Source: Pontibacter sp. HSC-36F09 (lineage in GTDB: Bacteria; Bacteroidota; Bacteroidia; Cytophagales; Hymenobacteraceae). Taken from it: a DNA stretch of 64,000 nt. The stretch covers positions 62,001-126,000 of the forward strand of contig NZ_JALKAA010000007.1 of assembly GCF_024171605.1 (NCBI RefSeq), given 5' to 3'. Both the position numbers and the translations under genes were made by a program. The notes beneath the pieces are model-generated. The model had not been told where the DNA came from and did no database searches. It saw nothing but the letters and a program-made list of their open reading frames with translations. Positions 17,636 to 44,918 of the stretch are shown piece after piece; the first letter of the stretch is position 1; the number at the start of each line of letters is the position of its first letter.

Positions 17636-17678
17636 CAAAGGTCATACAGGGTTATAAGGAGAAAAATGACATAGGTCA
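17636..17678 (-). promoter_or_regulatory. norB promoter with Crp/Fnr-type operator
   Basis: On the minus strand the palindrome TGAC-N4-GTCA (17678-17667) is followed by a -7-like GACCTTTG (17643-17636, one mismatch to TAnnTTTG). The two start exactly 35 bases apart. The same spacing is seen at the cupin, nos1, thioredoxin-like and hemA promoters, which places the operator near -41, as for class II activators. Confidence 0.55.
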
Positions 17679-17731
17679 CTAATAAAAGAGACTAAGGTCT
17701 TCTATTGTTTTGCAGCTCAGTAATACCTTTG
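17667..17731 (+). promoter_or_regulatory. Cupin-gene promoter with two tandem Crp/Fnr-type operators
   Basis: TGAC-ATAG-GTCA (17667-17678) and AGAC-TAAG-GTCT (17689-17700) lie 22 bases apart, two helical turns. They are followed by the -7 element TACCTTTG (17724-17731), 35 bases after the start of the second palindrome. The arrangement is repeated base for base in spacing at 18287-18351. The first palindrome is shared with the divergent norB promoter. Confidence 0.65.
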
Positions 17732-17813
17732 TACAAGTGTTACGGCTATGTTAAGTCCCTATACCTAGAGCGAGTTTATTTCTATATATAGTATTTTATA
17801 TATACATTGAGAT

Positions 17814-18215
17814 ATGAATGAAACTGACAAGTCACAGCAATCCGGCAGCCCTCAGGACAGTGGGAAAGACAAAATTTTACTCACCACAGATCTTACAACC
17901 CTGGCGCACGAGCTGAAGGGGGAGGAGAACTGGCAGAAAATCGGGCGGGGGTCCAGGACGATCTTTAAGTCCGAAACATTGCGCATCGTGTTGAACGTGA
18001 TGCAGGCGGGCTCTGAAATAAAACCGCACCAGGCACCGGGACCCATCAGTGTGCAGGTGGTTGAAGGCCGGATCAGATTCATCACAGAAGAGCAGTCGGT
18101 AGAGCTGGCAAAAGGGCAAATGCTAACTCTTCAGGCGCATGTGCGACACAGCGTCGAGGCCCTGGAAGAGGCAGCTTTTCTGCTGACCGTTTCTCCGCTT
18201 CCCTCCAGATCTTAA
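17814..18215 (+). CDS. Cupin-domain protein, denitrification-linked
   Basis: A protein of 133 residues with a single small cupin barrel. An N-terminal polar tail (about 25 residues) precedes the fold. The cupin motifs are weak: KPHQAPGPISVQVVEGRI, then LAKGQMLTLQAHVRHSVEA, leaving His residues as possible metal ligands. Its position between divergent norB and the nos operon, behind the same tandem operators as nos, points to a role in NO or N2O metabolism. It might be a sensor, a quencher of reactive nitrogen or a small binding protein. No catalytic function can be stated. Transcription probably starts near 17735. Confidence 0.75.
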   Translation: MNETDKSQQSGSPQDSGKDKILLTTDLTTLAHELKGEENWQKIGRGSRTIFKSETLRIVLNVMQAGSEIKPHQAPGPISVQVVEGRIRFITEEQSVELAKGQMLTLQAHVRHSVEALEEAAFLLTVSPLPSRS

Positions 18216-18286: not shown

Positions 18287-18351
18287 TGACGAAGGTCACT
18301 ATTAAAAGAGATAAAGGTCTTTTAATAAAAAACACGCTGATAATACCTTTG
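18287..18351 (+). promoter_or_regulatory. Promoter of the first nos operon with tandem operators
   Basis: TGAC-GAAG-GTCA (18287-18298) and AGAT-AAAG-GTCT (18309-18320) are 22 bases apart. They precede the -7 element TACCTTTG (18344-18351), with 35 bases from the second palindrome start. This duplicates the layout at 17667-17731. The spacing and symmetry fit a Crp/Fnr-family activator; the encoded receiver-Crp protein (55759-56820) is the obvious candidate. Confidence 0.65.
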
Positions 18352-18483
18352 TATTGTAAATGAAAGCCAAATAGTACCCAGTAAAGAGGAGTTCAGCGCC
18401 TAAAAAAACATCAAAACAGGATCTGATCCTCACAGTGCAAAACAGTAAAAACCATGAAACCCAAAAAACAAAAAACAACAATC

Positions 18484-18966
18484 ATGAAATCGATCAAATC
18501 CGCTGCTTTACTTTTCCTTGCTGCTCTGGTATTCTACAGCTGCTCATCTGACAACACCGCCACCACCGAAACAACACCGGAATCAGGTCTGGCACATCAG
18601 GCACCCGCAGCCCCAGTGGAAGATGACGGAAAAGGTATAGGCCCCATCACATCAGTTGAAGTAGGAGCAGACATAGACCAGGCTTTGGCTGCTGAGGGTA
18701 AATCTATTTTCGAAGGCAAGTGCTCTGCCTGCCACCAGTTGTCTGACCAGAAAATTGTAGGTCCTGGCTTGCTGGGCGTAACAGAAAAGCGCAAGCCGGA
18801 GTGGATCATGAACATGATCATCAACCCGGAGGAGATGACCAAGAAGGACCCTGCTGCTAAAAAACTGCTGGCTGAGCACTTAACGCAAATGACCAACCAG
18901 AACATTAACGAGACAGATGCCAGAGCTTTGCTTGAATTCCTGCGTCAGAACGACACAAATTCTTAA
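18484..18966 (+). CDS. Lipoprotein c-type cytochrome, nos operon 1
   Basis: A monohaem cytochrome of about 160 residues, expected to be lipid-anchored in the periplasm and to pass electrons to NosZ. I prefer the ATG at 18484 (MKSIKSAALLFLAALVFYSC), because it starts a normal lipoprotein signal with the acylated Cys at residue 20; an upstream ATG at 18454 adds ten residues. The haem site is CSACH (about residues 80-84). A later Met in the MNMIINPEEMTKK region is the probable sixth ligand. The gene is 30 bases ahead of nosZ. Its twin is at 25192-25737, with a nearly identical C-terminal half but a different N-terminus. Confidence 0.9.
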   Translation: MKSIKSAALLFLAALVFYSCSSDNTATTETTPESGLAHQAPAAPVEDDGKGIGPITSVEVGADIDQALAAEGKSIFEGKCSACHQLSDQKIVGPGLLGVTEKRKPEWIMNMIINPEEMTKKDPAAKKLLAEHLTQMTNQNINETDARALLEFLRQNDTNS

Positions 18967-18996
18967 TCAAAAAAAACAGCAAAAACCATAACCACG

Positions 18997-21015
18997 ATGA
19001 AATCATTATTCACCACCATCAAAAAAGCGGCTCCTGCTGCGGCCTTTACGCTGGCACTGGCCGGCGGTGCGGTACTGCAGGGTTGCAGCAGCGGACCTGG
19101 CGAAGGTAGTGCCACGGCTGCAGGTGTTGCCTCAGACGCTGCGCAGGCAGTGTATGTAGCACCGGGCAAGCATGACGAGTACTACTCTTTCCTGTCTGGC
19201 GGTTTCAACGGACAGATGTCTGTGTACGGACTTCCTTCCGGCCGTCTGCTGAAGATCATCCCGGTGTTCACGCAGCACGGTGAGAACGGCTACGGCTACA
19301 ACGAAGAGTCGAAAGCCATGCTCAACACTTCACACGGTTTCGTGCCTTGGGACGACCTGCACCACCCGAAACTGTCACGCACCAACGGTATGACAGACGG
19401 TCGCTGGTTGTTTGCAAACGGTAACAACACACCACGTGTGGCACGTGTCGACCTGTCTACTTTCGAGACTGTAGAGATCATGGAGATTCCGAACTCTGCC
19501 GGTAACCACTGCTCGCCATACCCAACTGACAACAACGAGTACGTGATTGCAGGTACACGCTTCTCTGTGCCACTCGACATGAAAGGCGGTACAGCTGACG
19601 TGAGCATGGACGAGTACAAGGACAAGTTCCGCGGCTCTATCTCCTTCATCAAAGTTGACCAGGAGAAAGGCGACATGGAGCTCGACTTCCAGATCCTTGT
19701 ACCAGGCTTCGACTACGACCTGGCAAACGGTGGCAAAGGCCCGTCTTCTGACTGGGTGTTCTTCACCACTTATAACACAGAACGTGCAGGTTCATTGAAG
19801 GAGCTTGGTGCATCGCAGAACGACCGCGACTACCTGGCTGCTGTGAACTGGAAACTGGCTGCCAAGTATGCCGCAGAAGGCAAAGCGAAGGAAATGCCAG
19901 CCTACTACTACCACAACAAAATGGACAAGGATACACACATCGCCAAGTCTACTATCAAGAAGACAGTGCGCTACCTGCTTCCGGAAGATTGCCCGGGCAT
20001 GATGTACCTGATCCCTGCGCCTAAGTCACCACACGGCATCGACGTGGACCCAAGCGGCGAGCACATGGTAGTGAGCGGTAAACTGGCTGCGACTATACCT
20101 GTATTCTCTTTCTCTAAAATGCAGAAGGCGATTGAAGACAAGGCTTTTGACGGTGAGATCAACGGTATCCCAGTGTTCAAATACGAGTCTGTGCTGAAAG
20201 CAGAAGTGCCGGAGCCAGGTCTTGGACCATTGCACACCGAGTTTGACGGAAAAGGCAACGCCTATACCTCTATGTTCGTGTCTTCTGAAGTAGTGAAATG
20301 GAAACTGAGCGACTTCACTGTAGTAGACAGAATGCCGGTTTACTACTCAGTTGGTCACTTGATGATCCCTGGTGGTGATACGCACACACCGGATGGCAAA
20401 TACCTGGTAGCAATGAACAAGATCACCAAAGACCGCTACCTGCCAACTGGTCCTGAACTGTCGCACTCTGCTCAGTTGATCGATATCAGCGGCGAGAAAA
20501 TGCGCATGCTCCTTGACTTCCCGACCGTAGCTGAACCGCACTACGCACAGGCCATCAAAGCTGAGAAAGTAGCACCTAACAGTGTGAAATTCTACGACCT
20601 GGCCAAGAACAAGCACCCACATGCGGTGAAGAAAGAGGCTGATGCCAGCGTGACCCGCGAAGGCAACGTAGTGAGAGTGAAAATGACGGCCATCCGTAGC
20701 CACATGACCCCGGACAACATCGAAGGTGTGCAGGTAGGCGACACCGTACTCTTCCACGTGACCAACCTCGAGCAGGACTGGGACGTACCGCACGGATTCG
20801 CGGTGATGGGCGCCAACACAGCCGAAACACTGATCATGCCGGGCGCTACGCAAACGCTGCGCTGGGTACCGAAGAAAGCCGGTGTGTTCCCATTCTACTG
20901 CACCGACTTCTGTTCTGCACTCCATCAGGAAATGCAAGGCTACATCAGAGTATCTCCTAAAGGCTCTCCTGTACCGATTTCCTTCTCAACAGGCAAAAAG
21001 AAGCCTGCCGCTTAA
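18997..21015 (+). CDS. nosZ: Nitrous oxide reductase, clade II, copy 1
   Basis: A periplasmic multicopper enzyme of 672 residues that reduces N2O to N2. The N-terminus is a Sec-type lipoprotein signal ending in LQGC (Cys30), not a Tat signal, which marks clade II NosZ. The beta-propeller carries the CuZ histidines, visible in DDLHHPK (His122/123), AGNHCSPYP, PHGIDVDP, LHTEF and HYAQ. The C-terminal cupredoxin domain has the CuA motif YCTDFCSALHQEM (Cys635, Cys639, His643, Met646). All ligand motifs look intact. The second copy at 25754-27796 shares more than 80% of residues by eye. A strong hairpin directly after the stop codon (21043-21082) probably limits transcription of the accessory genes relative to nosZ. 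Confidence 0.97.
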   Translation: MKSLFTTIKKAAPAAAFTLALAGGAVLQGCSSGPGEGSATAAGVASDAAQAVYVAPGKHDEYYSFLSGGFNGQMSVYGLPSGRLLKIIPVFTQHGENGYGYNEESKAMLNTSHGFVPWDDLHHPKLSRTNGMTDGRWLFANGNNTPRVARVDLSTFETVEIMEIPNSAGNHCSPYPTDNNEYVIAGTRFSVPLDMKGGTADVSMDEYKDKFRGSISFIKVDQEKGDMELDFQILVPGFDYDLANGGKGPSSDWVFFTTYNTERAGSLKELGASQNDRDYLAAVNWKLAAKYAAEGKAKEMPAYYYHNKMDKDTHIAKSTIKKTVRYLLPEDCPGMMYLIPAPKSPHGIDVDPSGEHMVVSGKLAATIPVFSFSKMQKAIEDKAFDGEINGIPVFKYESVLKAEVPEPGLGPLHTEFDGKGNAYTSMFVSSEVVKWKLSDFTVVDRMPVYYSVGHLMIPGGDTHTPDGKYLVAMNKITKDRYLPTGPELSHSAQLIDISGEKMRMLLDFPTVAEPHYAQAIKAEKVAPNSVKFYDLAKNKHPHAVKKEADASVTREGNVVRVKMTAIRSHMTPDNIEGVQVGDTVLFHVTNLEQDWDVPHGFAVMGANTAETLIMPGATQTLRWVPKKAGVFPFYCTDFCSALHQEMQGYIRVSPKGSPVPISFSTGKKKPAA

Positions 21016-21042
21016 CCTAAAGGTATAAGCCGGGCAATACAA

Positions 21043-21082
21043 AAGCGGAGGTTGCCCAAAGCAACCTCCGCTTAATTTTTAA
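21043..21082 (+). terminator. Intrinsic terminator directly after nosZ copy 1
   Basis: A perfect 13-bp stem (AAGCGGAGGTTGC/GCAACCTCCGCTT, 5-base loop) is followed by TAATTTTTAATTTT. It sits inside the operon, before the next gene at 21106, so it is likely a partial terminator. A counterpart is present after the second nosZ. Confidence 0.8.
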
Positions 21083-21105
21083 TTTTCACCTTAAAATAAA
21101 CAAGG

Positions 21106-21708
21106 ATGAAAGCTTACCTCAAAGTGCTGATGATGATAGCCTCGCTGTCTCTCGGTTTATTATTTCTCTTTCCGATGTGGAAGATCTACCTGCTGGCTCC
21201 CCAGTATCCCGAGGGACTGGAGATGCACATCTGGGTAAACAAAATTTCAGGTGATACGGACGGAGCTCTCCAGAACTTCAATATTCTAAACCACTACATT
21301 GGTATGGAGCCAATCCACGCCGACTCGTTCGCCGAACTCAAAATTATGCCTTATATCGTCATCTTCTTTATGGTGACAGGTATACTGGTAGCCCTGCTGG
21401 GCAAAAGAAAACTGGTGCTTTCCTGGGTTGTGCTGCTGATGATAAGCGGTGCCGTAGGTATAGCCGACTTCTACTTGTGGCTCAATAAATTCGGCACCAA
21501 CCTCGACCCGACTGCCCCGATCAAGGTACCGGGTATGACATACGTGCCGCCGCTTCTCGGAAGCAAAACGCTGCTCAACTTCGACGCTCTGTCGCTGCCT
21601 GCATGGGGTAGCTTAGGTATAGGGCTGGCAATATTGCTGGGAGGTCTGGTATACTTCTTCAGCCGCAGCACGGTGCAAGTGAAAAGTGCAAAAAAAGTGA
21701 TGGCATGA
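21106..21708 (+). CDS. Nos-operon integral membrane protein, copy 1
   Basis: A protein of 200 residues. Hydrophobic segments lie at about 5-25, 84-103, 107-127 and 165-190, with a periplasmic-looking loop between the first two (EMHIWVNKISG, ILNHYIGMEPIH) and another with IKVPGMTYVPPLL. It sits between nosZ and nosL in both nos operons. In other clade II organisms a polytopic protein called NosB follows nosZ and is needed for N2O respiration. This may be its counterpart, but I cannot show homology. Conserved His and Met residues in the loops could bind copper or haem. It overlaps nosL by four bases (ATGA). Confidence 0.85.
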   Translation: MKAYLKVLMMIASLSLGLLFLFPMWKIYLLAPQYPEGLEMHIWVNKISGDTDGALQNFNILNHYIGMEPIHADSFAELKIMPYIVIFFMVTGILVALLGKRKLVLSWVVLLMISGAVGIADFYLWLNKFGTNLDPTAPIKVPGMTYVPPLLGSKTLLNFDALSLPAWGSLGIGLAILLGGLVYFFSRSTVQVKSAKKVMA

Positions 21709-22172
21709 AATCTCTTAGCCTATACATGAGTTGCCTGGTGCTGTTGTTTGTGGTCCTGCTGGCAGGATGCCAGGTAAAGCCACAACCCATAGCCTACGGC
21801 GAGGTGAATTGCGCCCACTGCCAGATGACGGTGTCAGACAACAGGTATGGCGCTGAGATGATCAATGACAAAGGCAAACCGTTTTACTTCGACTCAGCCG
21901 AGTGTCTGGCCCTATACCTGGACCAGAACCCGGATCAGGCAGTAAAAGCGGCCTACGTGCTGGTAACAGATTTCACTAAACCCGGTGAACTGATGGTCGC
22001 CCGTAGTGCCAGTTTTATACAGAGCAAAGAGCTCCCAAGCCCGATGGGCATGTACCTGACGGCCGTGGCAGATGAAGCCACAGCTACCAAAATGCAACAG
22101 CAAGTAGGCGGTCGCCTGCTGAACTGGGAACAGGCCATGACAGCCGTTAAGAACAATGAAAAACCTGAGTAA
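21705..22172 (+). CDS. nosL: Copper chaperone NosL, copy 1
   Basis: A periplasmic lipoprotein of 155 residues with signal and lipobox LLAGC near residue 22. The copper(I)-binding motif is visible as CAHCQM, followed by SDNRYGAEMINDKGKP and a second conserved block FDSAECLALYL. NosL delivers copper for maturation of the CuZ site of NosZ, together with the NosDFY transporter. The gene overlaps the preceding membrane protein by 4 bases and nosD by 17 bases, so all are translated from one message. The twin is at 28477-28944. Confidence 0.93.
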   Translation: MKSLSLYMSCLVLLFVVLLAGCQVKPQPIAYGEVNCAHCQMTVSDNRYGAEMINDKGKPFYFDSAECLALYLDQNPDQAVKAAYVLVTDFTKPGELMVARSASFIQSKELPSPMGMYLTAVADEATATKMQQQVGGRLLNWEQAMTAVKNNEKPE

Positions 22173-23454
22173 ATATCTAATAGTTTGCACCGCATATGCT
22201 TTGGTGTGCCTGCTGGGAAGCCCTGCTGCTTTCGGCGACACACTAAAGGTATGCACCACCTGCGAGTACCACTCCGTGAAAGAAGCCGTGCGCCAGGCGA
22301 AAGCCGGCGACATTGTGCTTGTGGATGGAGGCGTGTACAAGGAGTCAGGTATAGAAATCACCCAGCCCATCAGTCTGATCGGGCGCAACAACCCCGTAAT
22401 CGATGGCCAGAACAGCGGCCAGATCATTACCATCAAATCTTCCAACGTAAAACTGGAAGGCTTTACAGTGCAAAACGTGGCCGTGAGCTACATGCGCGAC
22501 GACGCTGCCATCCGGGTGGCAGACCGCCAAAACATCCAGATACTGAACAACACGGTGCTCAACACTTACTTTGGCATATACCTGCAAAACGCCGACAACA
22601 GCGTGGTAAAAGGCAATGTGGTAAAAGGGGAGAACACCGGAAAGATAGAATCATCGCTGGGCAATGCCATACACGTGTGGCGCACCGACGGTGCCGAGAT
22701 TAGTAACAACAGGGTAGAGGGTCACCGCGACGGCATCTATTTTGAGTACGTCACAAACAGCCAGGTGCACGAAAACATCAGCGAGCGCAACAACCGCTAT
22801 GGCCTGCACTTTATGTTCTCGGATGGCAACGTGTATACTCAAAATATTTTCCGGAAAAACGGAGCCGGTGTGGCAGTGATGTATACCCGTAATATCCGGA
22901 TGGAGCACAACACCTTTGAAGATAATTGGGGCGCAGCCGCCTACGGACTGCTGCTGAAGGATATCTCGCAAAGTGTTATCCTAAACAACACATTCCGCAG
23001 AAACACCACCGGCATTTATATGGAAAGTTCCAGCCGGCTCGACATCAACAGCAACGATTTTGAGCGCAACGGTTGGGCCATACGCCTGCTGTCGAGCTGC
23101 ATTCAGGATACCTTCCGGCTCAACAACTTTACCGGCAACTCCTTTGATGTGAGCACCAACGGCAGCCCCACCATGAACCTGTTCGAGGACAACTACTGGG
23201 ACAAATACAGTGGCTACGACCTTGACAAAGACAAAACAGGGGATGTGCCCTACCGGCCGGTGAGTTTGTACTCTATGCTGGTAGAGCGGGTACCGCCTTC
23301 GGTGATGTTTATGCGCAGTTTTATGGTTGACCTGATGGATAGTATCGAACGGGTGCTGCCGAGTTTTATACCTGAGACACTGGTCGATGACCGACCTCAA
23401 ATGAAGAAAATAGATCATGATAGCGATAGAAAACTTGTCCAAAACCTACGGTAA
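22156..23454 (+). CDS. nosD: NosD, periplasmic beta-helix maturation protein, copy 1
   Basis: A protein of 432 residues with a Sec signal (cleavage near AFGD). An N-terminal pair of cysteines (VCTTCEY) is followed by a right-handed parallel beta-helix of repeating short strands (about 70-340, with many NN turns). The C-terminal region is amphipathic. NosD works with the NosFY ABC transporter in supplying sulfur or copper for CuZ assembly. It overlaps nosL at its 5' end and nosF by 38 bases at its 3' end. Its counterpart in the second operon is 442 residues long, because the reading frame continues further into nosF. Confidence 0.92.
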   Translation: MKNLSKYLIVCTAYALVCLLGSPAAFGDTLKVCTTCEYHSVKEAVRQAKAGDIVLVDGGVYKESGIEITQPISLIGRNNPVIDGQNSGQIITIKSSNVKLEGFTVQNVAVSYMRDDAAIRVADRQNIQILNNTVLNTYFGIYLQNADNSVVKGNVVKGENTGKIESSLGNAIHVWRTDGAEISNNRVEGHRDGIYFEYVTNSQVHENISERNNRYGLHFMFSDGNVYTQNIFRKNGAGVAVMYTRNIRMEHNTFEDNWGAAAYGLLLKDISQSVILNNTFRRNTTGIYMESSSRLDINSNDFERNGWAIRLLSSCIQDTFRLNNFTGNSFDVSTNGSPTMNLFEDNYWDKYSGYDLDKDKTGDVPYRPVSLYSMLVERVPPSVMFMRSFMVDLMDSIERVLPSFIPETLVDDRPQMKKIDHDSDRKLVQNLR

Positions 23455-24124
23455 GCTGAAGGTGCTCGATAACCTGAGCGTGAACTTTGACGGCGGCCGT
23501 GTAGTATCGATTATTGGCCCGAATGGCGCGGGCAAAACCACCATGAGCAAGTGCATCCTGGGCATGGTGCTGCCCGACAGCGGCGACATTAAATTCAACG
23601 GGGAGAGCGTGCTAAAACATCACGCCTACCGCAGCCAGATCGGCTACATGCCACAGATCGGAAAGTACCCGGAGAACATGAAGATCCGGCAGGTGATCGA
23701 GATGGTGCGCGACATCCGCAAAGACGCCACCGTGATTGACGAAGAACTGATTGGCCTCTATGGCCTCCAAAATATATATGACAAAAGAATGGGCTCCCTG
23801 TCGGGCGGCACGAAGCAGAAAGTGAGTGCGGCACTGGCCTTCCTCTTCGACCCGCAGGTGCTTATTCTCGATGAGCCGACCGCCGGCCTCGACCCGATCT
23901 CGGCGGAAATACTCAAGTGTAAGATCCTGAAAGAGAAGAAAAAGGGCAAGCTCATCCTGATCACCTCGCACATCATGAGCGAAGTAGAGGAAGTGGCCGA
24001 CGAGGTGATGTGCCTGATGGACGGCGCCGTGAAATTCCACGACACGATCTCCGGTATCAAGCAGAACACCAACGAGGAGCGCCTGAGCCGTGCCATTGCT
24101 AAAATTATGAATGAGGAGGACTAG
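23417..24124 (+). CDS. nosF: NosF, ABC transporter ATPase, copy 1
   Basis: An ABC ATPase of 235 residues that powers the NosDFY maturation transporter. The Walker A motif GPNGAGKTT is near residue 34, the signature LSGGTKQK near 129 and Walker B LILDEPTAGLD near 149. The H-loop follows as ITSHIMSE. It begins inside the 3' end of nosD and is followed after three bases by nosY. DNA around the signature motif is nearly identical to the second copy, while the first 36 codons differ much more. That uneven pattern suggests gene conversion between the copies. Confidence 0.95.
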   Translation: MIAIENLSKTYGKLKVLDNLSVNFDGGRVVSIIGPNGAGKTTMSKCILGMVLPDSGDIKFNGESVLKHHAYRSQIGYMPQIGKYPENMKIRQVIEMVRDIRKDATVIDEELIGLYGLQNIYDKRMGSLSGGTKQKVSAALAFLFDPQVLILDEPTAGLDPISAEILKCKILKEKKKGKLILITSHIMSEVEEVADEVMCLMDGAVKFHDTISGIKQNTNEERLSRAIAKIMNEED

Positions 24125-24127
24125 ACC

Positions 24128-24895
24128 ATGAACAAGATCATCAAGTACGTACTGTATGACATTATCCGGAACAAGATCGTAGTGGCCTATACCTTGTTCC
24201 TGCTGTTGCTTTCCATTGGCCTTTTCAACTTGGGCAGTAGTCCGGAAAAGGGTCTGCTGAGTCTGCTCAACCTGGTGCTTCTGACCGTACCGCTGATCAG
24301 CATCGTCTTTGCCACCACCCACTTCTACAACTCCTACGAGTTCATGGAACTGCTCGTGTCGCAGCCGATAAAACGCAGCAAGATCTTTATGAGTGAGTTC
24401 CTGGGCGTAACCTTGTCCTTGTCAGCCGCGATCCTGATAGGTATAGGTATACCAGTAGTGCTGTTCGCGCCGGGCGCTACGGGCCTATACCTCGTGTTGA
24501 CGGGCGTGTTCATCACCTTCATCTTCGTGGCCATGGCCTTCCTGGCCTCGGTCATCACGCGCGACAAAGCCAAAGGTATAGGTATAGCCCTGATGCTCTG
24601 GTTCTACTTCGCCCTGATCTACGACGGCATTGTGCTCTTCATCCTCTATTCTTTTGGAGACTACCCACTCGAGTACGCCACCCTGGCGCTGACGGCCCTG
24701 AATCCGGTGGACCTGGGCAGGGTGATGGTGCTGCTCAACCTGGACGTCTCGGCCATGATGGGCTACACGGGCGCGTTGTACAAGAGCATTTTCGGCAGCG
24801 GCTGGGGCGTGGGCATCGCCTTCCTGGTGCTCGTGCTTTGGGTAATGGTGCCACTGCTGCTCTCCAGAAGGGCCTTTACCAGAAGGGATTTGTAG
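24128..24895 (+). CDS. nosY: NosY, ABC transporter permease, copy 1
   Basis: A membrane protein of 255 residues with six predicted helices, forming the permease of the NosDFY system in the cytoplasmic membrane. It begins MNKIIKYVLYDIIRNK and contains IVFATTHFYNSYEFMELL. By eye it differs from the second NosY at about 15 of 255 positions, making it the best conserved gene of the two operons. It is the last gene of operon 1. A terminator follows at 24949-24983. Confidence 0.94.
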   Translation: MNKIIKYVLYDIIRNKIVVAYTLFLLLLSIGLFNLGSSPEKGLLSLLNLVLLTVPLISIVFATTHFYNSYEFMELLVSQPIKRSKIFMSEFLGVTLSLSAAILIGIGIPVVLFAPGATGLYLVLTGVFITFIFVAMAFLASVITRDKAKGIGIALMLWFYFALIYDGIVLFILYSFGDYPLEYATLALTALNPVDLGRVMVLLNLDVSAMMGYTGALYKSIFGSGWGVGIAFLVLVLWVMVPLLLSRRAFTRRDL

Positions 24896-24948
24896 CATGG
24901 GAAAAACCCCCTTTGCTACATCATAAAAATTGAAAGTGTTTGTGTGTT

Positions 24949-24983
24949 AAAGAGTGCAGGTCGAAAGGCCTGCGCTCTTTTGC
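24949..24983 (+). terminator. Terminator between the two nos operons
   Basis: A 12-bp stem (AAAGAGTGCAGG/CCTGCGCTCTTT, one T-G pair) with an 8-base loop ends in CTCTTTTGCG. It separates nosY copy 1 from the second operon. Confidence 0.8.
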
Positions 24984-25191
24984 GTTTTAGCCAAAGGCTT
25001 TTTCAAGTCTGGTTAGGGAGTTCTTCTATTTTAGAATTTTTGCCTCGGGTGTCAGGAAAAAGTATTAAAAAATCGAGTTCTGAAAAGTGCGGCAAGGGCA
25101 TGGGAAACACCCCCAAAATAAACCGTAAACACTATAGTGCGTACACATTCGCAGTAATGCTTAACAGAAATCCAACTAAACCATCAAAACT
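24984..25191 (+). promoter_or_regulatory. Upstream region of the second nos operon
   Basis: This is the only space for a promoter of operon 2. I find neither the TGAC-N4-GTCA palindromes nor an exact TAnnTTTG here. A short palindrome CACTATAGTG lies at about 25130-25139. A frame at 24944-25195 overlaps the cytochrome start and looks spurious. Control of this operon therefore seems to differ from operon 1. Confidence 0.4.
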
Positions 25192-25737
25192 ATGACAAAT
25201 CAGTCTTCTTCCCTAAAGAAATTACTTCGAGATCAATTGCCCGGATCTATCAGGTATGGCGTTGTGGCCCTTTTTTGTGGCTCTTTGCTTTTTAGTTGTT
25301 CATCAGGTGATAATGAAAAAAATGCAACTGAGTCTCAGGAGCAAACCGGGCTGGCACACCAGCAGGAGCAGGCCCCTGTAGAGGATGATGGCAAAGGTAT
25401 AGGACCAGTTTCTTCTATAGAAGTAAGTGAGAACATTGATGATGCCCTGGCTGCTGAGGGTAAGACAATTTTTGAAGGGAAATGTTCTGCCTGCCACCAG
25501 CTAACCGACCAGAAAATTGTCGGCCCGGGCTTGTTGGGGGTAACAGAAAAGCGCAAGCCGGAATGGATCATGAACATGGTGATCAATCCGGAGGAAATGA
25601 CCAAGAAAGACCCTACCGCCAAGAAACTATTGGCTGAGCACCTGACGCAAATGACCAACCAGAACATTAACGAGACGGACGCACGCGCTATACTGGAGTT
25701 CTTAAGACAAAATGACCTCCAGGCACAAGGAAAATAA
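25192..25737 (+). CDS. Lipoprotein c-type cytochrome, nos operon 2
   Basis: A monohaem cytochrome of 181 residues, the counterpart of the one at 18484-18966. Its signal peptide has a longer basic and polar N-terminus and a lipobox ending at Cys36 (LLFSC). The haem motif is CSACH at 98-102. The following region (DQKIVGPGLLGVTEKRKPEW and onwards) is almost the same as in copy 1. Electron donation to NosZ copy 2 is the expected role. The gene is the first of operon 2 and is 16 bases ahead of nosZ. Confidence 0.9.
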   Translation: MTNQSSSLKKLLRDQLPGSIRYGVVALFCGSLLFSCSSGDNEKNATESQEQTGLAHQQEQAPVEDDGKGIGPVSSIEVSENIDDALAAEGKTIFEGKCSACHQLTDQKIVGPGLLGVTEKRKPEWIMNMVINPEEMTKKDPTAKKLLAEHLTQMTNQNINETDARAILEFLRQNDLQAQGK

Positions 25738-25753
25738 TTAAACCCTAAAGAAC

Positions 25754-27796
25754 ATGAAAGTACTTAACCGCAATTTAAAAAAGATAGCACCCAGGATCGG
25801 CGTCTTGTTTACGCTGATGGCGGGTGCGGTACTGCAGGGATGTGGAGGAGGGGAAGGAGGTCAGAAATCAGATGTAGTGGACTCTGAGGCCTCGGCTGCA
25901 GTTTATGTTCCACCTGGACAGCATGATGAATACTACTCTTTCCTTTCTGGAGGTTTCAACGGGCAGGTATCGGTATATGGCCTCCCTTCCGGCAGACTGC
26001 TCAAAGTGATCCCTGTTTTCTCGCAATTCGCTGAAAACGGCTACGGCTATAACGAGGAAACCAAACCAATGCTGATGACCTCTCACGGTTTCGTGCCCTG
26101 GGATGACCTGCACCACCCGAAACTGTCGCGCACTGATGGTACGGCGGATGGCAAGTTCCTGTATGTGAATGGCAACAACACACCGCGTGTGGCAAAAGTG
26201 GATCTGACTACTTTTGAGACCGTAGAGATCATGGAGATCCCGAACTCTGCCGGTAACCACTGCTCGCCATACCCAACCAACAATAACGAATACATTCTGG
26301 CAGGTACCCGCTTCTCAGTTCCCCTGGATCTGGAAAAAGGTGGCATGGGAGATGCAAGCCTGGAGGAGTATGAAGACAAGTTTAGGGGCTCTATCTCTTT
26401 CATCAAAACAAATGAAGAGGATGGCCACATGGAGCTGGACTTCCAGGTGCTGGTGCCCGGTTTTGACTATGACCTGGCAAACGGTGGTAAAGGACCTTCC
26501 GAAGACTGGGTGTTCTTTACGACTTACAACACAGAGCGGGCCCGCACTTTGAAAGAGCTCGGCGCCTCGCAGAACGACCGCGACTACCTGGCCGCCATCA
26601 ACTGGAAACTGGCTGCCAAGTATGCCGCAGAGGGCAAGGCGCATGAAATGCCAGCCAACTATTACCATAACACGATGGACCATGGTTCGCACCAGGCTAA
26701 ATCCAATGTTATAAAAAAGGTTCGGTACCTGCTGCCGGAAGAATGCCCGGGCATGATGTATCTGATACCGGCGCCTAAGTCGCCGCACGGCATTGACGTG
26801 GACCCAACTGGGGAGTACATGGTAGTGAATGGCAAGCTGGCTTCGTCCTTGCCAGTGTTCTCTTTCTCTAAAATGCAGAAGGCCATCGAGAACAAGGATT
26901 TTGACGGCGAGGTAAATGGTATTCCGGTATTCAAGTACGAGTCTGTATTGTATGGCGAAGTAAAAGAGCCGGGTCTGGGACCATTGCACACCGAGTTCGA
27001 CAACAAAGGCAATGGCTACTCTACCATGTTCGTGTCGTCGGAAGTGGTGAAGTGGAATGTGAAAGACCTGAAGGTATTGGACAGAATACCGGTTTACTAT
27101 TCGCCGGGCCACTTGATGATTCCGGGTGGAGATACTAAGGAGCCAAACGGCAAATATCTGGTGGTGATGAACAAGATCACCAAAGACCGCTACCTGCCGA
27201 CCGGGCCAGAACTGGTGCATGCTGCCCAACTGATCGACATCAGCGGTGATAAAATGAGGCTGCTCCTCGACTTCCCGACCCTGGCAGAACCGCATTACGC
27301 GCAGGCGATCGAAGCAGATAAAGTGGCGCCGAACAGCGTCAAGTTCTTCAAGCTCGGTGAGAATACCCACCCGGATGCCGTGAAAAAAGAGTCTGACGTG
27401 AGTGTGACGCGCAACGGCAAGACGGTGAAAATTAACATGACTTCCATCCGAAGCCACTTTACCCCAGACAACATTGAAGGTGTGCAGGTGGGTGACACTG
27501 TACTCTTCCACGTGACCAACCTGGAGCAGGACTGGGACGTGCCGCATGGCTTCGCCGTGATGGGCGCCAACAACTCCGAGACGTTGATCATGCCGGGCGC
27601 CACACAGTCGCTACGTTGGGTGCCTAAACAGCCAGGCATATATCCTTTCTACTGTACGGACTTCTGTTCTGCCCTCCACCAGGAGATGCAGGGCTACGTG
27701 CGGGTGTCGCCAAGAGGATCTAACCCTGCTATCAAGTTCTCGACTGGCGAGAAGCGACCGGTACCGCCGGCCCAGGCAAGTGCAAATATTAAATAA
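25754..27796 (+). CDS. nosZ: Nitrous oxide reductase, clade II, copy 2
   Basis: A second complete NosZ of 680 residues with Sec lipoprotein signal (LQGC, Cys30), intact CuZ histidine motifs (DDLHHPK, NHCSPYP, HGIDVDP, LHTEF, HYAQ) and CuA motif YCTDFCSALHQEM (Cys634, Cys638, His642, Met645). Compared with copy 1, the differences are spread through surface regions; within a 135-residue stretch near the N-terminus I counted about 22 substitutions. The C-terminal tail is longer and ends AQASANIK. Both copies therefore look functional. A terminator-like hairpin follows (27813-27855), as after copy 1. This gene contains no AGGTATA heptamer, unlike most of the window. Confidence 0.97.
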   Translation: MKVLNRNLKKIAPRIGVLFTLMAGAVLQGCGGGEGGQKSDVVDSEASAAVYVPPGQHDEYYSFLSGGFNGQVSVYGLPSGRLLKVIPVFSQFAENGYGYNEETKPMLMTSHGFVPWDDLHHPKLSRTDGTADGKFLYVNGNNTPRVAKVDLTTFETVEIMEIPNSAGNHCSPYPTNNNEYILAGTRFSVPLDLEKGGMGDASLEEYEDKFRGSISFIKTNEEDGHMELDFQVLVPGFDYDLANGGKGPSEDWVFFTTYNTERARTLKELGASQNDRDYLAAINWKLAAKYAAEGKAHEMPANYYHNTMDHGSHQAKSNVIKKVRYLLPEECPGMMYLIPAPKSPHGIDVDPTGEYMVVNGKLASSLPVFSFSKMQKAIENKDFDGEVNGIPVFKYESVLYGEVKEPGLGPLHTEFDNKGNGYSTMFVSSEVVKWNVKDLKVLDRIPVYYSPGHLMIPGGDTKEPNGKYLVVMNKITKDRYLPTGPELVHAAQLIDISGDKMRLLLDFPTLAEPHYAQAIEADKVAPNSVKFFKLGENTHPDAVKKESDVSVTRNGKTVKINMTSIRSHFTPDNIEGVQVGDTVLFHVTNLEQDWDVPHGFAVMGANNSETLIMPGATQSLRWVPKQPGIYPFYCTDFCSALHQEMQGYVRVSPRGSNPAIKFSTGEKRPVPPAQASANIK

Positions 27797-27812
27797 GATT
27801 AGCTGATTGTGA

Positions 27813-27855
27813 AGGACAGCGGAGTTTGTTAAATCCAGGCTTCGCTGTCTTTTTA
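27813..27855 (+). terminator. Terminator directly after nosZ copy 2
   Basis: The stem GACAGCG/CGCTGTC with a longer loop is followed by TTTTTAT. Its position matches the hairpin after nosZ copy 1, though the sequence is unrelated, so the arrangement has been kept or regained independently. Confidence 0.65.
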
Positions 27856-27878
27856 TACCCTAAACTAAACGGAAAAAG

Positions 27879-28460
27879 ATGCGCATATACCTGAGAATAC
27901 TGATGGTCGTGGCAGCTTTGTCACTTGGTACACTGTTTCTCCTCCCGATGTGGAAGATATACCTGGAGGCGCCGCAATATCCCGAAGGGTTAGAGTTGCA
28001 CATCTGGATAGACAAGCTGGGCGGCAGCTCGGACCACGTACTGCAGAATTTCAATATCCTGAATCACTACATCGGGATGGAGGCAATTCACCCCGAATCT
28101 TTTGCCGAGCTCAAGTATATGCCCTATATTGTCATTTTCTTTATGGTGACGGGTGTGATCGTGGGGCTGCTTGGCAGGAGGAATTTGGTGCTGTACTGGG
28201 TTATCCTGTTGGCTATAGCAGGCGCTGCCGGTATTGCCGACTTCTACTGGTGGTTGTACAAATTCGGAACCAACCTCGATCCCACTGCTCCGATCAAAGT
28301 ACCAGGCATGACGTACATTCCGCCCTTGCTGGGCCATAAAGCACTACTCAATTTCAATGCGCTCTCGCTGCCCGCCTGGGGTAGCATAGGCATCTTCCTG
28401 GCTATCGTCATAGGCGGACTCGTATACCTATTAAGCAAGCGTAAAATCAATTCTACTTAA
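27879..28460 (+). CDS. Nos-operon integral membrane protein, copy 2
   Basis: A protein of 193 residues, counterpart of the one at 21106-21708. It has the same helices and loop motifs (LPMWKIYLEAPQYPEG, ILNHYIGMEAIHPESFAEL, PTAPIKVPGMTY). The shared residues in the loops, especially the His and Met positions, are the best pointers to its active region. The C-terminal basic tail is shorter. Unlike copy 1 it does not overlap nosL; a 16-base gap follows. It may be the counterpart of NosB of other clade II systems, judged by gene order only. Confidence 0.85.
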   Translation: MRIYLRILMVVAALSLGTLFLLPMWKIYLEAPQYPEGLELHIWIDKLGGSSDHVLQNFNILNHYIGMEAIHPESFAELKYMPYIVIFFMVTGVIVGLLGRRNLVLYWVILLAIAGAAGIADFYWWLYKFGTNLDPTAPIKVPGMTYIPPLLGHKALLNFNALSLPAWGSIGIFLAIVIGGLVYLLSKRKINST

Positions 28461-28476
28461 CCCGAAAATCTTCGAC

Positions 28477-28944
28477 ATGTTACACAAACCCACCCTTTAC
28501 ACACTGAGCCTCCTACTCCTACTTTTTGGAACGGCGGGCTGCTCAGTGGAGCCAAAACCTGTGCCCTATGGTGAGGCCAATTGCACCCATTGCCAGATGA
28601 CAGTGTCGGATAACCGGTATGGCGCTGAACTGGTGAACGACAAAGGAAAGGCTCTTTACTTCGACGCGGCCGAGTGCCTGGCGTCCTATACCCTGGAACA
28701 GGCTGAGATAAGCGACAAAGCGGCTTATCTGCTGGTAACAGACTTTGCTAACCCGAATACCCTGATTGAGGTGGACAAGGCGCATTTCCTGCAAAGCGCA
28801 GAGTTGCCAAGCCCCATGGGCATGTTCCTGTCCGCTGTGGCGGACGAGGCGACGGCCAACAAGATGCAACAGGAGTATGGAGGCCGCCTGCTGAACTGGG
28901 AGGAGGTTAAACAAGCCGTGAGGAATAATGAGAAACCCGAGTAA
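28477..28944 (+). CDS. nosL: Copper chaperone NosL, copy 2
   Basis: A lipoprotein of 155 residues with lipobox GTAGC and the copper motif CTHCQM, then SDNRYGAELVNDKGKA and FDAAECLASYTL. The length is the same as copy 1. The C-terminal half is well conserved, with SPMGMFLSAVADEATANKMQ. It overlaps nosD by 17 bases, exactly as in operon 1. The expected role is copper delivery for NosZ maturation. Confidence 0.93.
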   Translation: MLHKPTLYTLSLLLLLFGTAGCSVEPKPVPYGEANCTHCQMTVSDNRYGAELVNDKGKALYFDAAECLASYTLEQAEISDKAAYLLVTDFANPNTLIEVDKAHFLQSAELPSPMGMFLSAVADEATANKMQQEYGGRLLNWEEVKQAVRNNEKPE

Positions 28945-30256
28945 ACATATTATAATCTGGACAGCATGCGCCTTTGTGCTGCTGCTGACGAGCCTGCAGG
29001 CTGTCGGCGGCACCTTAAAGGTGTGCACTACCTGCGAGTATCGTTCGGTGAAAGAGGCCGTCAGCAAAGCCAAAGCTGGCGATGTGGTGCTTGTGGACGG
29101 AGGCACGTACAAAGAGTCAGGTATAACGATCACCCAACCCATCCGTCTGATCGGGCAAAACAACCCGGTAATAGACGGCAATAACAGCGGCCAGATCATT
29201 ACGGTGGCTTCTGACAACGTCACCATTCAGGGCTTCACGCTGCAAAACGTGGCCACCAGCTATACCCGCGATGATGCGGCTATCCGGGTCAAGCAGCAGA
29301 ACAACATCCAGATACTGAACAATACTATCCTGAAGACCTACTTCGGGATATACCTGCAGTACGCAGACAGCATCGTCATCAAAGACAACGTGATAAAAGG
29401 GGAGAACCTGGGCAGGACGGAATCCTCGCTCGGCAATGCCATCCACCTGTACTACACCGACGACGTGCAGATCATCGGGAATGATGTGCAGGGCCACCGG
29501 GACGGCATCTACCTCGAGACAGTGAAGAACAGCAAGGTAGTACGTAACATCAGTCACCAGAACATGCGCTATGGTCTGCACTTTATGTTTTCAGATAACA
29601 ACGTGTACACTCATAACACCTTCCAGAAAAACGGGGCCGGTGTGGCCGTGATGTATACCACCAACGTCCATATGGAGTATAACACCTTTGAGGACAACTG
29701 GGGCGCCGCCTCCTACGGACTACTCCTGAAAGAAATAAACAACAGCTTTATTCACAACAACATTTTCCGGCGCAACACCACCGGTATACACATGGAAAGC
29801 TCCAGCCGCCTGGATTTCAAAAACAATGTTTTCGAGCGTAACGGCTGGGCTATCAAATTGATGACCACGTGTATAGACGATACTTTCCGGTTGAACAACT
29901 TCACTGGTAATTCTTTTGACATCAGCACCAACGGGAATGCACAGCACAACTACTTTGAGCATAACTACTGGGACAAATACACGGGATACGACCTGGATAA
30001 AGACGGCATAGGCGATGTGCCCTACCGGCCGGTGAGCCTATACTCCATGCTGGTGGAGCAGGTGCCGCCTTCCATTATGTTCATGCGCAGCTTTATGGTA
30101 GACCTGCTGGACAACATGGAAAAAGTAATGCCAAGTATCATCCCCCAGACCCTGGTGGACGAAAAGCCCTTAATGAAGAAGATAGATCATGATAACAATA
30201 GAGAATTTGTACAAGTCCTACGGCAAACTGCAAGTGCTCCGTGGCGTGAGCGTTAA
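28928..30256 (+). CDS. nosD: NosD, periplasmic beta-helix maturation protein, copy 2
   Basis: A protein of 442 residues with a Sec signal, the cysteine pair VCTTCEY and a parallel beta-helix, as in copy 1. The 3' end overlaps nosF by 68 bases, against 38 bases in operon 1. The stop codon used in copy 1 has been lost, adding the tail RQTASAPWRER. The extension is read from DNA that also encodes the NosF N-terminus and is probably neutral. Confidence 0.92.
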   Translation: MRNPSKHIIIWTACAFVLLLTSLQAVGGTLKVCTTCEYRSVKEAVSKAKAGDVVLVDGGTYKESGITITQPIRLIGQNNPVIDGNNSGQIITVASDNVTIQGFTLQNVATSYTRDDAAIRVKQQNNIQILNNTILKTYFGIYLQYADSIVIKDNVIKGENLGRTESSLGNAIHLYYTDDVQIIGNDVQGHRDGIYLETVKNSKVVRNISHQNMRYGLHFMFSDNNVYTHNTFQKNGAGVAVMYTTNVHMEYNTFEDNWGAASYGLLLKEINNSFIHNNIFRRNTTGIHMESSSRLDFKNNVFERNGWAIKLMTTCIDDTFRLNNFTGNSFDISTNGNAQHNYFEHNYWDKYTGYDLDKDGIGDVPYRPVSLYSMLVEQVPPSIMFMRSFMVDLLDNMEKVMPSIIPQTLVDEKPLMKKIDHDNNREFVQVLRQTASAPWRER

Positions 30257-30902
30257 GCTCGAAGAAGGTAAAGTTATATCGATTATAGGCCCGAATGGCG
30301 CAGGCAAAACCACCATGAGCAAGTGCATCCTGGGCATGGTGCTGCCCGACAGTGGCGATATTAAAATTAACGGGGAGAGCGTGCTCAAAAAACACCTCTA
30401 CCGCAGCCAGATCGGGTACATGCCCCAGATCGGCAAGTACCCGGAGAACATGAAGATCCGGCAGGTGATCGAGATGGTGCGCGACATCCGTAAAAAGGCC
30501 GCCGTGATCGACGAAGAACTGATTGGCCTCTATGGCCTCCAAAATATGTATGACAAAAGAATGGGCTCCCTGTCGGGCGGCACGAAGCAGAAAGTAAGCG
30601 CCGCGCTGGCCTTCCTCTTCGACCCGCAGATCCTGATTCTGGACGAACCAACTGCCGGCCTCGACCCGATCTCGGCCGAGATCCTGAAAGGTAAAATCCT
30701 GAAAGAGAAAAAGAAAGGAAAGCTGGTGCTCATCACCTCGCATGTGATGAGCGAGATTGAGGAAGTGGCCGACGAGATACTCTGCCTGGTAGACGGCAAT
30801 GTGATGTTCTATGAAACTATTTCTGACCTGAAAGCACAAACGCAGGAAACACGCCTGAGCCGTGCGGTCGCTAAAATCATGAACGAAGGGAGGGTGATAT
30901 AA
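30189..30902 (+). CDS. nosF: NosF, ABC transporter ATPase, copy 2
   Basis: An ABC ATPase of 237 residues with Walker A GPNGAGKTT, signature LSGGTKQK and Walker B LILDEPTAGLD. It resembles copy 1 most closely in the central part (about residues 38-165). It is more diverged in the first 36 residues and near the C-terminus, where copy 2 ends in NEGRVI rather than NEED. It should pair with NosY copy 2, but exchange of subunits between the two transporters seems likely given the conservation of NosY. Confidence 0.95.
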   Translation: MITIENLYKSYGKLQVLRGVSVKLEEGKVISIIGPNGAGKTTMSKCILGMVLPDSGDIKINGESVLKKHLYRSQIGYMPQIGKYPENMKIRQVIEMVRDIRKKAAVIDEELIGLYGLQNMYDKRMGSLSGGTKQKVSAALAFLFDPQILILDEPTAGLDPISAEILKGKILKEKKKGKLVLITSHVMSEIEEVADEILCLVDGNVMFYETISDLKAQTQETRLSRAVAKIMNEGRVI

Positions 30903-30905
30903 GCC

Positions 30906-31673
30906 ATGAACAAGATCATCAAGTACGTATTGTATGACATTTTGCGCAGCAAGATCGTTGTCGCTTATACCTTGTTCCTGCTGTTGCTCTCCATCGGCCT
31001 CTTCAACCTGGGCGGCAGCCCCGACAAAGGTTTGCTAAGCTTGCTGAACCTGGTGCTGCTGACTGTGCCACTGATCAGCATCGTCTTCGCCACCACCCAC
31101 TTCTACAACTCCTACGAGTTCATGGAGCTTTTGGTCTCCCAGCCCATCCGCCGCAGCAAGATCTTTCTGAGCGAGTACCTGGGCGTGTCCCTTTCCCTGT
31201 CTGCCGCTTTTTTGATCGGGGTCGGTATACCGGTGCTCTTGTTCGCGCCCGGGGCCACTGGCCTCTACCTTGTGCTCACGGGCCTCTTCATCACCTTCAT
31301 CTTCGTGGCCCTGGCTTTTCTGGCCTCGGTCATTACCAGGGATAAAGCCAAAGGTATAGGCATTGCGCTTATGCTCTGGTTCTACTTTGCCCTGATCTAC
31401 GACGGCATCGTGCTCTTCATCCTTTACTCCTTTGGCGACTACCCGCTTGAGTACGCCACCCTGGCGCTGACGGCCCTCAACCCGGTGGATCTGGGCCGGG
31501 TGATGGTGCTGCTCAACCTGGACGTCTCGGCTATGATGGGCTACACGGGCGCGTTGTACAAGAGCATCTTTGGCAGCGCCTGGGGCGTGGGCATCGCCTT
31601 TCTGGTGCTCGTGCTTTGGGTAATGGTGCCACTGCTGCTCTCCAGAAGGGCCTTTATTAGGAGGGATCTTTAG
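30906..31673 (+). CDS. nosY: NosY, ABC transporter permease, copy 2
   Basis: A six-helix permease of 255 residues, about 94% identical by eye to the NosY at 24128-24895. Most changes are conservative and cluster in the stretch around RRSKIFLSEYLGVSLSLSAA. It ends the second nos operon. A strong bidirectional terminator (31703-31753) follows. Confidence 0.94.
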   Translation: MNKIIKYVLYDILRSKIVVAYTLFLLLLSIGLFNLGGSPDKGLLSLLNLVLLTVPLISIVFATTHFYNSYEFMELLVSQPIRRSKIFLSEYLGVSLSLSAAFLIGVGIPVLLFAPGATGLYLVLTGLFITFIFVALAFLASVITRDKAKGIGIALMLWFYFALIYDGIVLFILYSFGDYPLEYATLALTALNPVDLGRVMVLLNLDVSAMMGYTGALYKSIFGSAWGVGIAFLVLVLWVMVPLLLSRRAFIRRDL

Positions 31674-31702: not shown

Positions 31703-31753
31703 ACACCCAAAAAAAATCCCCGTCTTGCGAAAGGCGGGGATTTTTTTGGGTGT
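31703..31753. terminator. Bidirectional terminator after the second nos operon
   Basis: A long stem, ACACCCAAAAAAAATCCCCG with CGGGGATTTTTTTGGGTGT, has T-runs on both strands. It ends nos operon 2 and the convergent small lipoprotein gene. Confidence 0.9.
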
Positions 31754-44840: not shown

Positions 44841-44918
44841 TGATAAATATATCAGAAAAATATTTAAGAAAAAAAGACCTTTTTATCTTTTATTTTGTTC
44901 TGCCTGTGTATACCTTTA
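44841..44918 (+). promoter_or_regulatory. Possible promoter of the RIC gene
   Basis: Two imperfect palindromes, TGAT-N6-ATCA (44841-44854) and AGAC-N6-ATCT (44875-44888), precede TACCTTTA (44911-44918), a near -7 element. The centre of the second palindrome lies the same distance from the -7 box as in the nos promoters, but the spacer is two bases longer. This is a weak match only. Confidence 0.3.

What the first reader, a model, noticed from the sequence alone, without database searches (positions are those of the whole stretch)
18454..31673. Two complete nos operons in direct tandem
The same seven genes (cytochrome c lipoprotein, nosZ, membrane protein, nosL, nosD, nosF, nosY) occur twice in the same order, and all copper and ATPase motifs are intact in both. 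Duplication of a whole N2O-reduction operon, including the maturation machinery, is unusual. The copies have diverged to different degrees (NosY about 6% by eye, NosZ about 15-20%), which suggests an old duplication with selection or gene conversion rather than a recent assembly artefact.
Basis: partly seen in the sequence, partly recalled or inferred. Interest (0 to 1): 0.85.

Follow-up and report, generated by a model that had tools for sequence, protein, structure and literature searches.

The report
Paired nos operons with split regulation
This bacterium carries two complete, long-diverged sets of genes for destroying the greenhouse gas nitrous oxide side by side; about a third of the genomes examined in its genus do the same, both sets look kept intact by selection, and only the first has the usual control region, so the pair looks like two differently controlled versions of one machine.

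Summary
Confirmed. Window 18454-31673 (a Pontibacter genome) holds two complete seven-gene clade II nos operons, A then B, in direct tandem. 18 of 50 Pontibacter genomes have it, one of them a single contig, so it is no assembly artefact. It is unusual: 0 of 13 nosZ-bearing genomes of other genera in the family, and only the window's own of 128 in a draw from the phylum, have two full-length nosZ. A and B are old lineages; each also occurs alone in other Pontibacter and in the genus that includes Rufibacter. The downstream units form one clade in a five-gene tree and a B-type nosZ tree, suggesting one origin; some single-gene trees are less clean. High NosY identity reflects gene conversion, mainly in nine related species: synonymous sites are homogenised too. 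New here: every upstream unit (18/18) and nearly every single operon examined has a conserved double-dyad promoter module; no downstream unit does (0/18); a terminator-like hairpin lies between the units in 18/18. Both units show purifying selection. Most likely they are two separately regulated N2O-reductase systems with an interchangeable NosY; the functional part is inference. Multiple nos clusters were known; I saw no report of this arrangement. New variant of a known kind.

The parts
17667..17731 (+). Second copy of the double-dyad promoter module (one mismatch), upstream of a cupin gene
17814..18215 (+). Cupin-domain gene between the qNor-like gene and unit A; preceded by the same module
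   Evidence: (PF07883)
18287..18351 (+). Double-dyad promoter module of unit A: TGACnnnnGTCA (18287-18298), AAAAGA-N8-TCTTTT (18304-18323), TAnnTTTG box (18344-18351)
   Evidence: AAAGA-N8-TCTTT and the box 39 nt after its start in 18 of 18 tandem unit 1, the dyad in 0 of 18 unit 2; full pattern with up to 3 mismatches only twice in the genome, both here
18454..18966 (+). Unit A cytochrome c (putative lipoprotein)
18997..21015 (+). Unit A nosZ (clade II, Sec type)
21106..21708 (+). Unit A membrane protein (NosB-like by position)
   Evidence: no Pfam or NCBIfam match
21705..22172 (+). Unit A nosL
   Evidence: PF05573
22156..23454 (+). Unit A nosD
   Evidence: TIGR04247
23417..24124 (+). Unit A nosF (ABC ATPase)
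24128..24895 (+). Unit A nosY, gene-converted with unit B nosY
24949..24980 (+). Terminator-like hairpin after unit A (14 pairs)
   Evidence: a hairpin in 18 of 18 tandem genomes; fold of 24930-25000, z -5.48
24981..25191 (+). Leader of unit B: lacks the double-dyad module; last ~80 bases look conserved among nine species
   Evidence: (alignment read by eye)
25192..25737 (+). Unit B cytochrome c (putative lipoprotein)
25754..27796 (+). Unit B nosZ (clade II, Sec type)
27879..28460 (+). Unit B membrane protein (NosB-like by position)
   Evidence: no Pfam or NCBIfam match
28477..28944 (+). Unit B nosL
   Evidence: PF05573
28928..30256 (+). Unit B nosD
30189..30902 (+). Unit B nosF (ABC ATPase)
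30906..31673 (+). Unit B nosY
31712..31745 (+). Terminator-like hairpin after unit B, different in sequence from the one after unit A

Best explanation
Two complete clade II nitrous oxide reductase operons from two long-separated lineages (A and B) sit in tandem as separate transcription units and are both maintained. Shown by comparison: both intact and under purifying selection; A always upstream, B always downstream; A preceded by a conserved promoter module that B lacks; a terminator-like hairpin between them; in nine related species nosY is repeatedly overwritten between units by gene conversion while the other genes stay distinct as whole genes. Inferred: A is the regulated operon, switched on by a CRP/FNR-type sensor acting at TGACnnnnGTCA with a second factor at AAAAGA-N8-TCTTTT; B is driven from its own leader or by limited read-through, so the cell has two N2O reductases made under different conditions. 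Each reductase keeps its own cytochrome c donor and its own NosL, NosD and membrane protein, while the permease NosY is interchangeable between the units.
For: Same A-B order and strand in 18 of 50 Pontibacter genomes, the window's included. Median dN/dS 0.03-0.16 for each gene of each unit over 11 chosen close pairs. AAAGA-N8-TCTTT (up to one mismatch): 18/18 tandem unit 1, each with TAnnTTTG 39 nt after its start; 0/18 unit 2; 14/15 A-only, 9/10 B-only, 6/6 outgroup operons. In unit 1 leaders the most frequent perfect dyad of shuffles reaches 4 of 18 at most (shuffled in 2-mer blocks). Full module only twice in the genome, reversed control 0. Hairpin 38-56 nt past upstream nosY in 18/18; window copy z -5.48. 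Gene conversion: in G009 nosY copies differ at 1% of fourfold sites, nosF at 39%, nosZ at 59%; identity 97-100% in the twelve 60-base windows after the nosY start, 57-67% in the two before, 35% beyond the stop; 'all upstream nosY one clade' rejected, p-AU 1.4e-5, while up and down copies of nosZ (support 100), nosF (97) and nosD (67) split in one step. Interchangeable NosY (inference): G003 (P. roseus) has 13 of 14 genes, lacking only downstream nosY. Collapse scar: G011, a single operon whose cyt to nosF fall with the upstream units and whose nosY falls in the converted clade, ends in a hairpin like the one that follows unit B in relatives (by eye). Seven NosZ sites separate A from B at 90% or more in 33 and 28 rows; one (V452P) lies two residues before a putative CuZ histidine.
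Against: No expression or activity data: differential use is inferred. The leader of B is not shown to be a promoter; read-through would couple B to A. Terminator-like sites as a class are no commoner than chance in this region (16 found, 14.6 expected), and one search had no shuffled control. TGACnnnnGTCA alone is hardly commoner than chance in the window (29 with up to one mismatch, 22.3 expected, 4 of 100 shuffles as many); the combination is what stands out. Direction B to A rests on modest support (81-87). In the other nine tandem species whole nosY genes stay apart or one is missing, so sharing of NosY is not general, although G004 has three adjacent windows at 93-100%. nirK, as a niche proxy, does not separate tandem (11 of 18) from single-nos (12 of 22) genomes.
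Confidence: 0.55

Rival explanations
1. Dosage: the two units are functionally equivalent and the second is expressed by partial read-through past the hairpin, giving more enzyme in a fixed ratio.
For: Same gene set, same putative copper ligands in both; no module and, in 17 of 18, no TAnnTTTG box within 300 bases of the downstream unit.
Against: NosZ copies are 78% identical with type-specific sites; conversion spares nosZ; a hairpin with T-rich tail in 18 of 18.
Confidence: 0.25
2. Ancestral in-place tandem duplication in a common ancestor of Pontibacter and the Rufibacter-containing genus, followed by many losses of A or of B.
For: A and B types are each found alone in both genera; many single operons share flanks with the tandem locus; G011 looks like a later loss. 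Single-gene trees of the membrane gene, nosL, nosD and nosF place some B-only operons among the downstream ones, several forks weak.
Against: In a five-gene tree all 18 downstream units form one clade without the 10 B-only operons (99), as in a B-type nosZ tree (98); in the larger nosZ tree G025 falls among them. Placing downstream nosZ of G012/G013/G039 with their species relatives G014/G020 is rejected (p-AU 0.0075; 6.4e-5; the group was chosen after the trees had been seen).
Confidence: 0.35
3. The tandem arose when a B-type operon without its promoter module was joined downstream of a resident A-type operon once (or twice) and was then passed on vertically and as a block between species.
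For: Single clade of downstream units; module dyad missing in all 18 of them but present in 9 of 10 B-only operons; upstream and downstream parts of the five-gene tree agree for most of the nine other tandem species, G003 and G004 excepted, and differ from the rpoBC tree.
Against: Upstream units are one weak clade (45) or two; junctions and mobile elements were not searched for systematically; the matching test on the A side was not significant (p-AU 0.075); the single-gene trees are mixed.
Confidence: 0.5
4. Assembly artefact or a decaying redundant copy.
For: None for the window; one relative (G028) has an N-run and a repeated stretch inside its downstream nosY.
Against: 18 genomes, one of them a single 4.34 Mb contig; an open frame for every gene in all 18 except one absent nosY in G003; dN/dS far below 1.
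Confidence: 0.01

Closest known systems
Single clade II (Sec-type) nos cluster of Bacteroidota
   Same: Same gene content as the single operons of relatives: cytochrome c, nosZ, membrane protein, nosL, nosD, nosF, nosY; NosZ well over the TIGR04246 cut-off
   Different: Present twice, in tandem, with different leaders
Multiple dispersed nos clusters in Schinkia (PMC13274427, passages seen)
   Same: Several divergent nos clusters in one genome, nosZ of one genome more unlike each other than like those of other species
   Different: Four nosZ dispersed in the genome; here two adjacent operons, with gene conversion between them
Dechloromonas aromatica and Wolinella succinogenes two nosZ (PMC2907700, passages seen)
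   Same: Two nosZ close together
   Different: In D. aromatica two identical nosZ with nosD in a cluster said to lack nosRFYL; no second complete operon described
Two-nosZ MAGs of Danish wastewater (PMC11409646, passages seen)
   Same: 15 of 401 clade II MAGs hold two different nosZ, 10 of them Bacteroidota
   Different: None within 45 genes of each other
Calidifontibacillus erzurumensis MAG with two nos clusters (PMC11388526, passages seen)
   Same: Two nos clusters in one genome
   Different: Only one of them has nosL; adjacency not stated in the passages seen

Membership tests
Clade II (Sec-dependent) NosZ | TIGR04246 score above the curated cut-off | tested here: met
   923 and 908 bits against 625
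Clade II (Sec-dependent) NosZ | CuA and CuZ ligand residues present (identity of ligands recalled) | tested here: met
   Conserved in 61 of 61 A- and B-type rows; alignment to solved NosZ
Clade II (Sec-dependent) NosZ | N2O reduction activity | not testable with these tools
   No experiment possible
Complete nos operon | nosZ with nosD, nosF, nosY and nosL | tested here: met
   Both units
In-place tandem duplication | The two copies are each other's closest relatives at the time the tandem formed | tested here: inconclusive
   A and B occur alone elsewhere and downstream units look like one clade; single-gene trees are mixed; ancestral duplication with losses is not excluded
Concerted evolution (gene conversion) of paralogues | Synonymous sites homogenised within a genome in a bounded tract | tested here: met
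   nosY in nine related species; as whole genes the others keep the up/down split: one change for cyt, nosL, nosD, nosF and nosZ, two for the membrane gene
FNR/HcpR-type regulated operon | Dyad with core TGACnnnnGTCA upstream (HcpR-like TTGACnnnnGTCAA, PMC1274295, passages seen) and its regulator | tested here: inconclusive
   Core positionally conserved upstream of unit A, 14 of 18 exact and 4 of 18 with one mismatch; no binding protein was sought

The most novel reading that the evidence does not exclude
A stable two-isoenzyme N2O-reducing locus: the enzyme, its electron donor and its dedicated maturation proteins diverge as two matched sets under two different control regions, while the permease gene nosY is kept common to both by repeated gene conversion and can even be dropped from one unit; the downstream unit has a single origin and moves with its partner between species as a block.
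Probability: 0.35. Interest if true: 0.7.

Novelty: new variant of a known kind. Interest (0 to 1): 0.52.

Why it matters
Why some N2O reducers keep several nosZ is open: PMC11409646 calls the purpose unclear and PMC13274427 speaks of intriguing questions (passages). Here the question becomes testable: related species carry A alone, B alone, or A plus B at loci that often share flanking genes, with a clear difference in leaders, a natural nosY loss and an apparent natural collapse of the tandem. It also suggests which maturation proteins are matched to a given NosZ (cytochrome, NosL, NosD, membrane protein) and which is interchangeable (NosY).

Tried and rejected
Assembly artefact: rejected (18 genomes, one single-contig). 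NosY similarity by strong purifying selection alone: rejected, because fourfold sites are homogenised too. Link of the tandem to nirK: none seen, 11 of 18 against 12 of 22 single-nos genomes; 2 of 10 nos-less genomes have nirK. Placing downstream nosZ by species relatives: rejected, group chosen after seeing the trees; not significant for upstream nosZ (p-AU 0.075). 18 downstream plus G025 as one clade: best tree (support 72), but disfavoured (p-AU 0.041). A-type monophyly in the five other genes: the best tree puts the nine window-clade upstream units and G011 outside A2 plus B (95), but A as one clade is not rejected (p-AU 0.31, 42 thinned rows). Sigma-70-like promoter scan: 13 found, 13.2 expected, no use. 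Structure prediction was not run: as described the tool returns no coordinates, so distances from the type-specific sites to CuZ could not have been measured. Dropped rows: G064, G069, G070, G087 and G092 were left out of every nos tree; G078 and G093 also; G177; G099, G102 and G103 (searches were built before the ten loci, G177 among them, were fetched). Searches used 33 A-type or 28 B-type rows with six others each; only the tandem rows. One search used 11 chosen close pairs. One search left six tests unfinished; four were taken up on smaller sets, two (all upstream rows alone; all seven rows of genus g6) were not. In the phylum draw at most three candidates a genome were scored, so a second weak copy could be missed.

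Full report
WHAT IS THERE. Unit A (18454-24895) and unit B (25192-31673) each hold cytochrome c, nosZ, membrane protein, nosL, nosD, nosF and nosY on the + strand. Paralogue identity runs from 94% (NosY) down to 64% (NosL); NG86 dS is 1.2-1.95 for nosZ, the membrane gene, nosL and nosD, not computable for the cytochrome, and 0.66 for nosF and 0.63 for nosY. The window is G000:C7:62001-126000 of a 4.43 Mb genome. Its genus is Pontibacter: 15 of 18 named records tested (L033-L050) are Pontibacter records identical at six of six probes to same-genus genomes of the search; the other three are two Rufibacter (genus g6) and one Adhaeribacter.

HOW COMMON. Of 50 genus genomes, 40 have clade II nosZ: 18 have two, 22 one, 10 none. 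All 18 are direct tandems in the order A, B, among them P. virosus, P. lucknowensis, P. chinhatensis, P. roseus, P. burrus, P. amylolyticus and P. populi, and one single-contig genome, G030. In the family, 53 of 204 genomes have nosZ and only these 18 have two; 0 of 13 nosZ-bearing genomes of other genera do. In a draw of 395 genomes from the phylum, 128 have a match and only the window's genome has two full-length genes; one further genome has two adjoining partial hits that look like one split gene (at most three candidates scored a genome).

HISTORY. In the nosZ tree the upstream copies fall in one clade (A) and the downstream copies in another (B), support 97 each, together with 12 A-only and 6 B-only Pontibacter and 3 A-type and 4 B-type operons of genus g6. 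Four Pontibacter operons (G019, G023, G027, G031) lie outside both. Among tandem rows the up/down split needs one change for cyt, nosL, nosD, nosF and nosZ, and two for the membrane gene. The 18 downstream units are one clade without the 10 B-only operons in a five-gene tree (99) and in a B-type nosZ tree (98); in the larger nosZ tree G025 falls among them, and single-gene trees of the membrane gene, nosL, nosD and nosF mix some B-only rows in, several forks weak. Upstream units are one weak clade with G011 and G029 (45) or two clades. On an rpoB-rpoC tree of 57 genomes tandem, A-only, B-only, other-nos and nos-less genomes are mixed (23 changes, shuffled mean 32.5), and keeping the downstream nosZ of G012, G013 and G039 with their relatives G014 and G020 is rejected (p-AU 0.0075, 6.4e-5; chosen after seeing the trees). 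So A and B appear to have diverged before the present tandem arrangement, and the arrangement was probably made once on the B side and then partly moved between species. An ancestral duplication with many losses remains possible.

GENE CONVERSION. In nine related species (G000, G048, G040, G028, G010, G009, G005, G015, G047) the two nosY copies intermingle in the tree. Fourfold-site difference between the nosY copies is 0.01-0.33 in eight of the nine and 0.49 in G015, against 0.51-0.60 for nosZ in the same nine; nosF lies between (0.31-0.41), so small patches there are possible. In G009 near-identity starts close to the nosY start and ends at its stop, at 60-base resolution. In the eight other tandem species with both nosY copies the whole genes stay apart, though G004 has three adjacent windows at 93-100%. 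G011 looks like the product of recombination here: a single operon with A-type genes up to nosF, converted-clade nosY and a hairpin like that after unit B. G003 has lost the downstream nosY without a remnant.

REGULATION. A module of TGACnnnnGTCA, AAAAGA-N8-TCTTTT and TAnnTTTG at fixed spacing stands upstream of unit A. With one mismatch allowed, AAAGA-N8-TCTTT is found upstream of 18/18 tandem unit 1, 14/15 A-only, 9/10 B-only and 6/6 outgroup operons, and 0/18 tandem unit 2, within 600 bases. TAnnTTTG is the Bacteroidetes -7 element (recalled). The complete module, up to three mismatches, occurs twice in the genome, at unit A and upstream of the cupin gene beside it. The first dyad resembles the HcpR core TTGACnnnnGTCAA of PMC1274295 (passages). 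A hairpin with a T-rich tail follows upstream nosY in 18/18 (no shuffled control; as a class such sites are no commoner than chance here, 16 against 14.6; the window's folds at z -5.48). The last ~80 bases before unit B look conserved among the nine species, G028 being shorter there (by eye), so a separate control element is plausible but unproven.

FUNCTION. Median dN/dS is 0.03-0.16 for each gene in each unit over 11 close pairs, so both units appear to be used. Seven NosZ positions separate the types at 90% or more; V452P lies two residues before the putative CuZ histidine H454 (ligand recalled). NosD has three such sites, the other five proteins none. The simplest reading is two matched reductase systems made under different conditions with an exchangeable NosY. 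The steps shown are sequence facts; condition-dependent use and exchange of NosY are inference.

LITERATURE. Seven searches of the library showed, in the titles and abstract starts listed, no description of a tandem of complete nos operons or of nos genes in Pontibacter. Listed were 15 of 16, 9 of 9 (15), 6 of 6 (30), 30 of 35 (31), 12 of 2,729 (59), 7 of 7 (71) and 15 of 22 (72). The nine papers that hold both 'Pontibacter' and 'nosZ' were not opened. Passages of seven papers were seen: PMC11409646, PMC2907700, PMC13274427, PMC1274295, PMC11131594, PMC11102522 and PMC11388526. [quoted passage not shown] I could not check whether any of these is a tandem of complete operons.

Noticed in passing
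window 18997-19090 and 25754-25850: NosZ signal peptides end in a lipobox-like LQGC in both units; a simple lipobox pattern is met in 36 of 36 tandem NosZ and 35 of 42 others, so NosZ may be a lipoprotein here.
   Followed up: partly
window 17667-17731: A second copy of the nos promoter module stands upstream of a cupin gene (17814-18215) next to a divergent qNor-like gene (15120-17420, minus strand); the cupin gene may belong to the same regulon.
   Followed up: partly
L120 (G003, Pontibacter roseus) 17747-17835: Downstream nosY is missing without remnant; nosF is followed by a short hairpin and the PTPS gene.
   Followed up: yes
L112 (G028, Pontibacter virosus), downstream nosY: N-run with a repeated stretch inside nosY: probably an assembly gap, so its length is not real.
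   Followed up: partly
L135 (G011): Single nos operon that looks like a collapsed tandem: A-type genes, but a hairpin like that after unit B.
   Followed up: partly
L145-L148 (G023, G027, G031, G019): A third nos type in four Pontibacter species outside A and B; all four have the qNor-like gene upstream, and G023 and G031 also share downstream flank genes with the window.
   Followed up: partly
window 44872-44891: A perfect AAAAGA-N8-TCTTTT dyad far from nos, without the other module parts.
   Followed up: no
window 3548-6199, minus strand: Cyanophycin synthetase-like gene next to an asparaginase-family gene (2455-3420): a possible cyanophycin storage pair.
   Followed up: no
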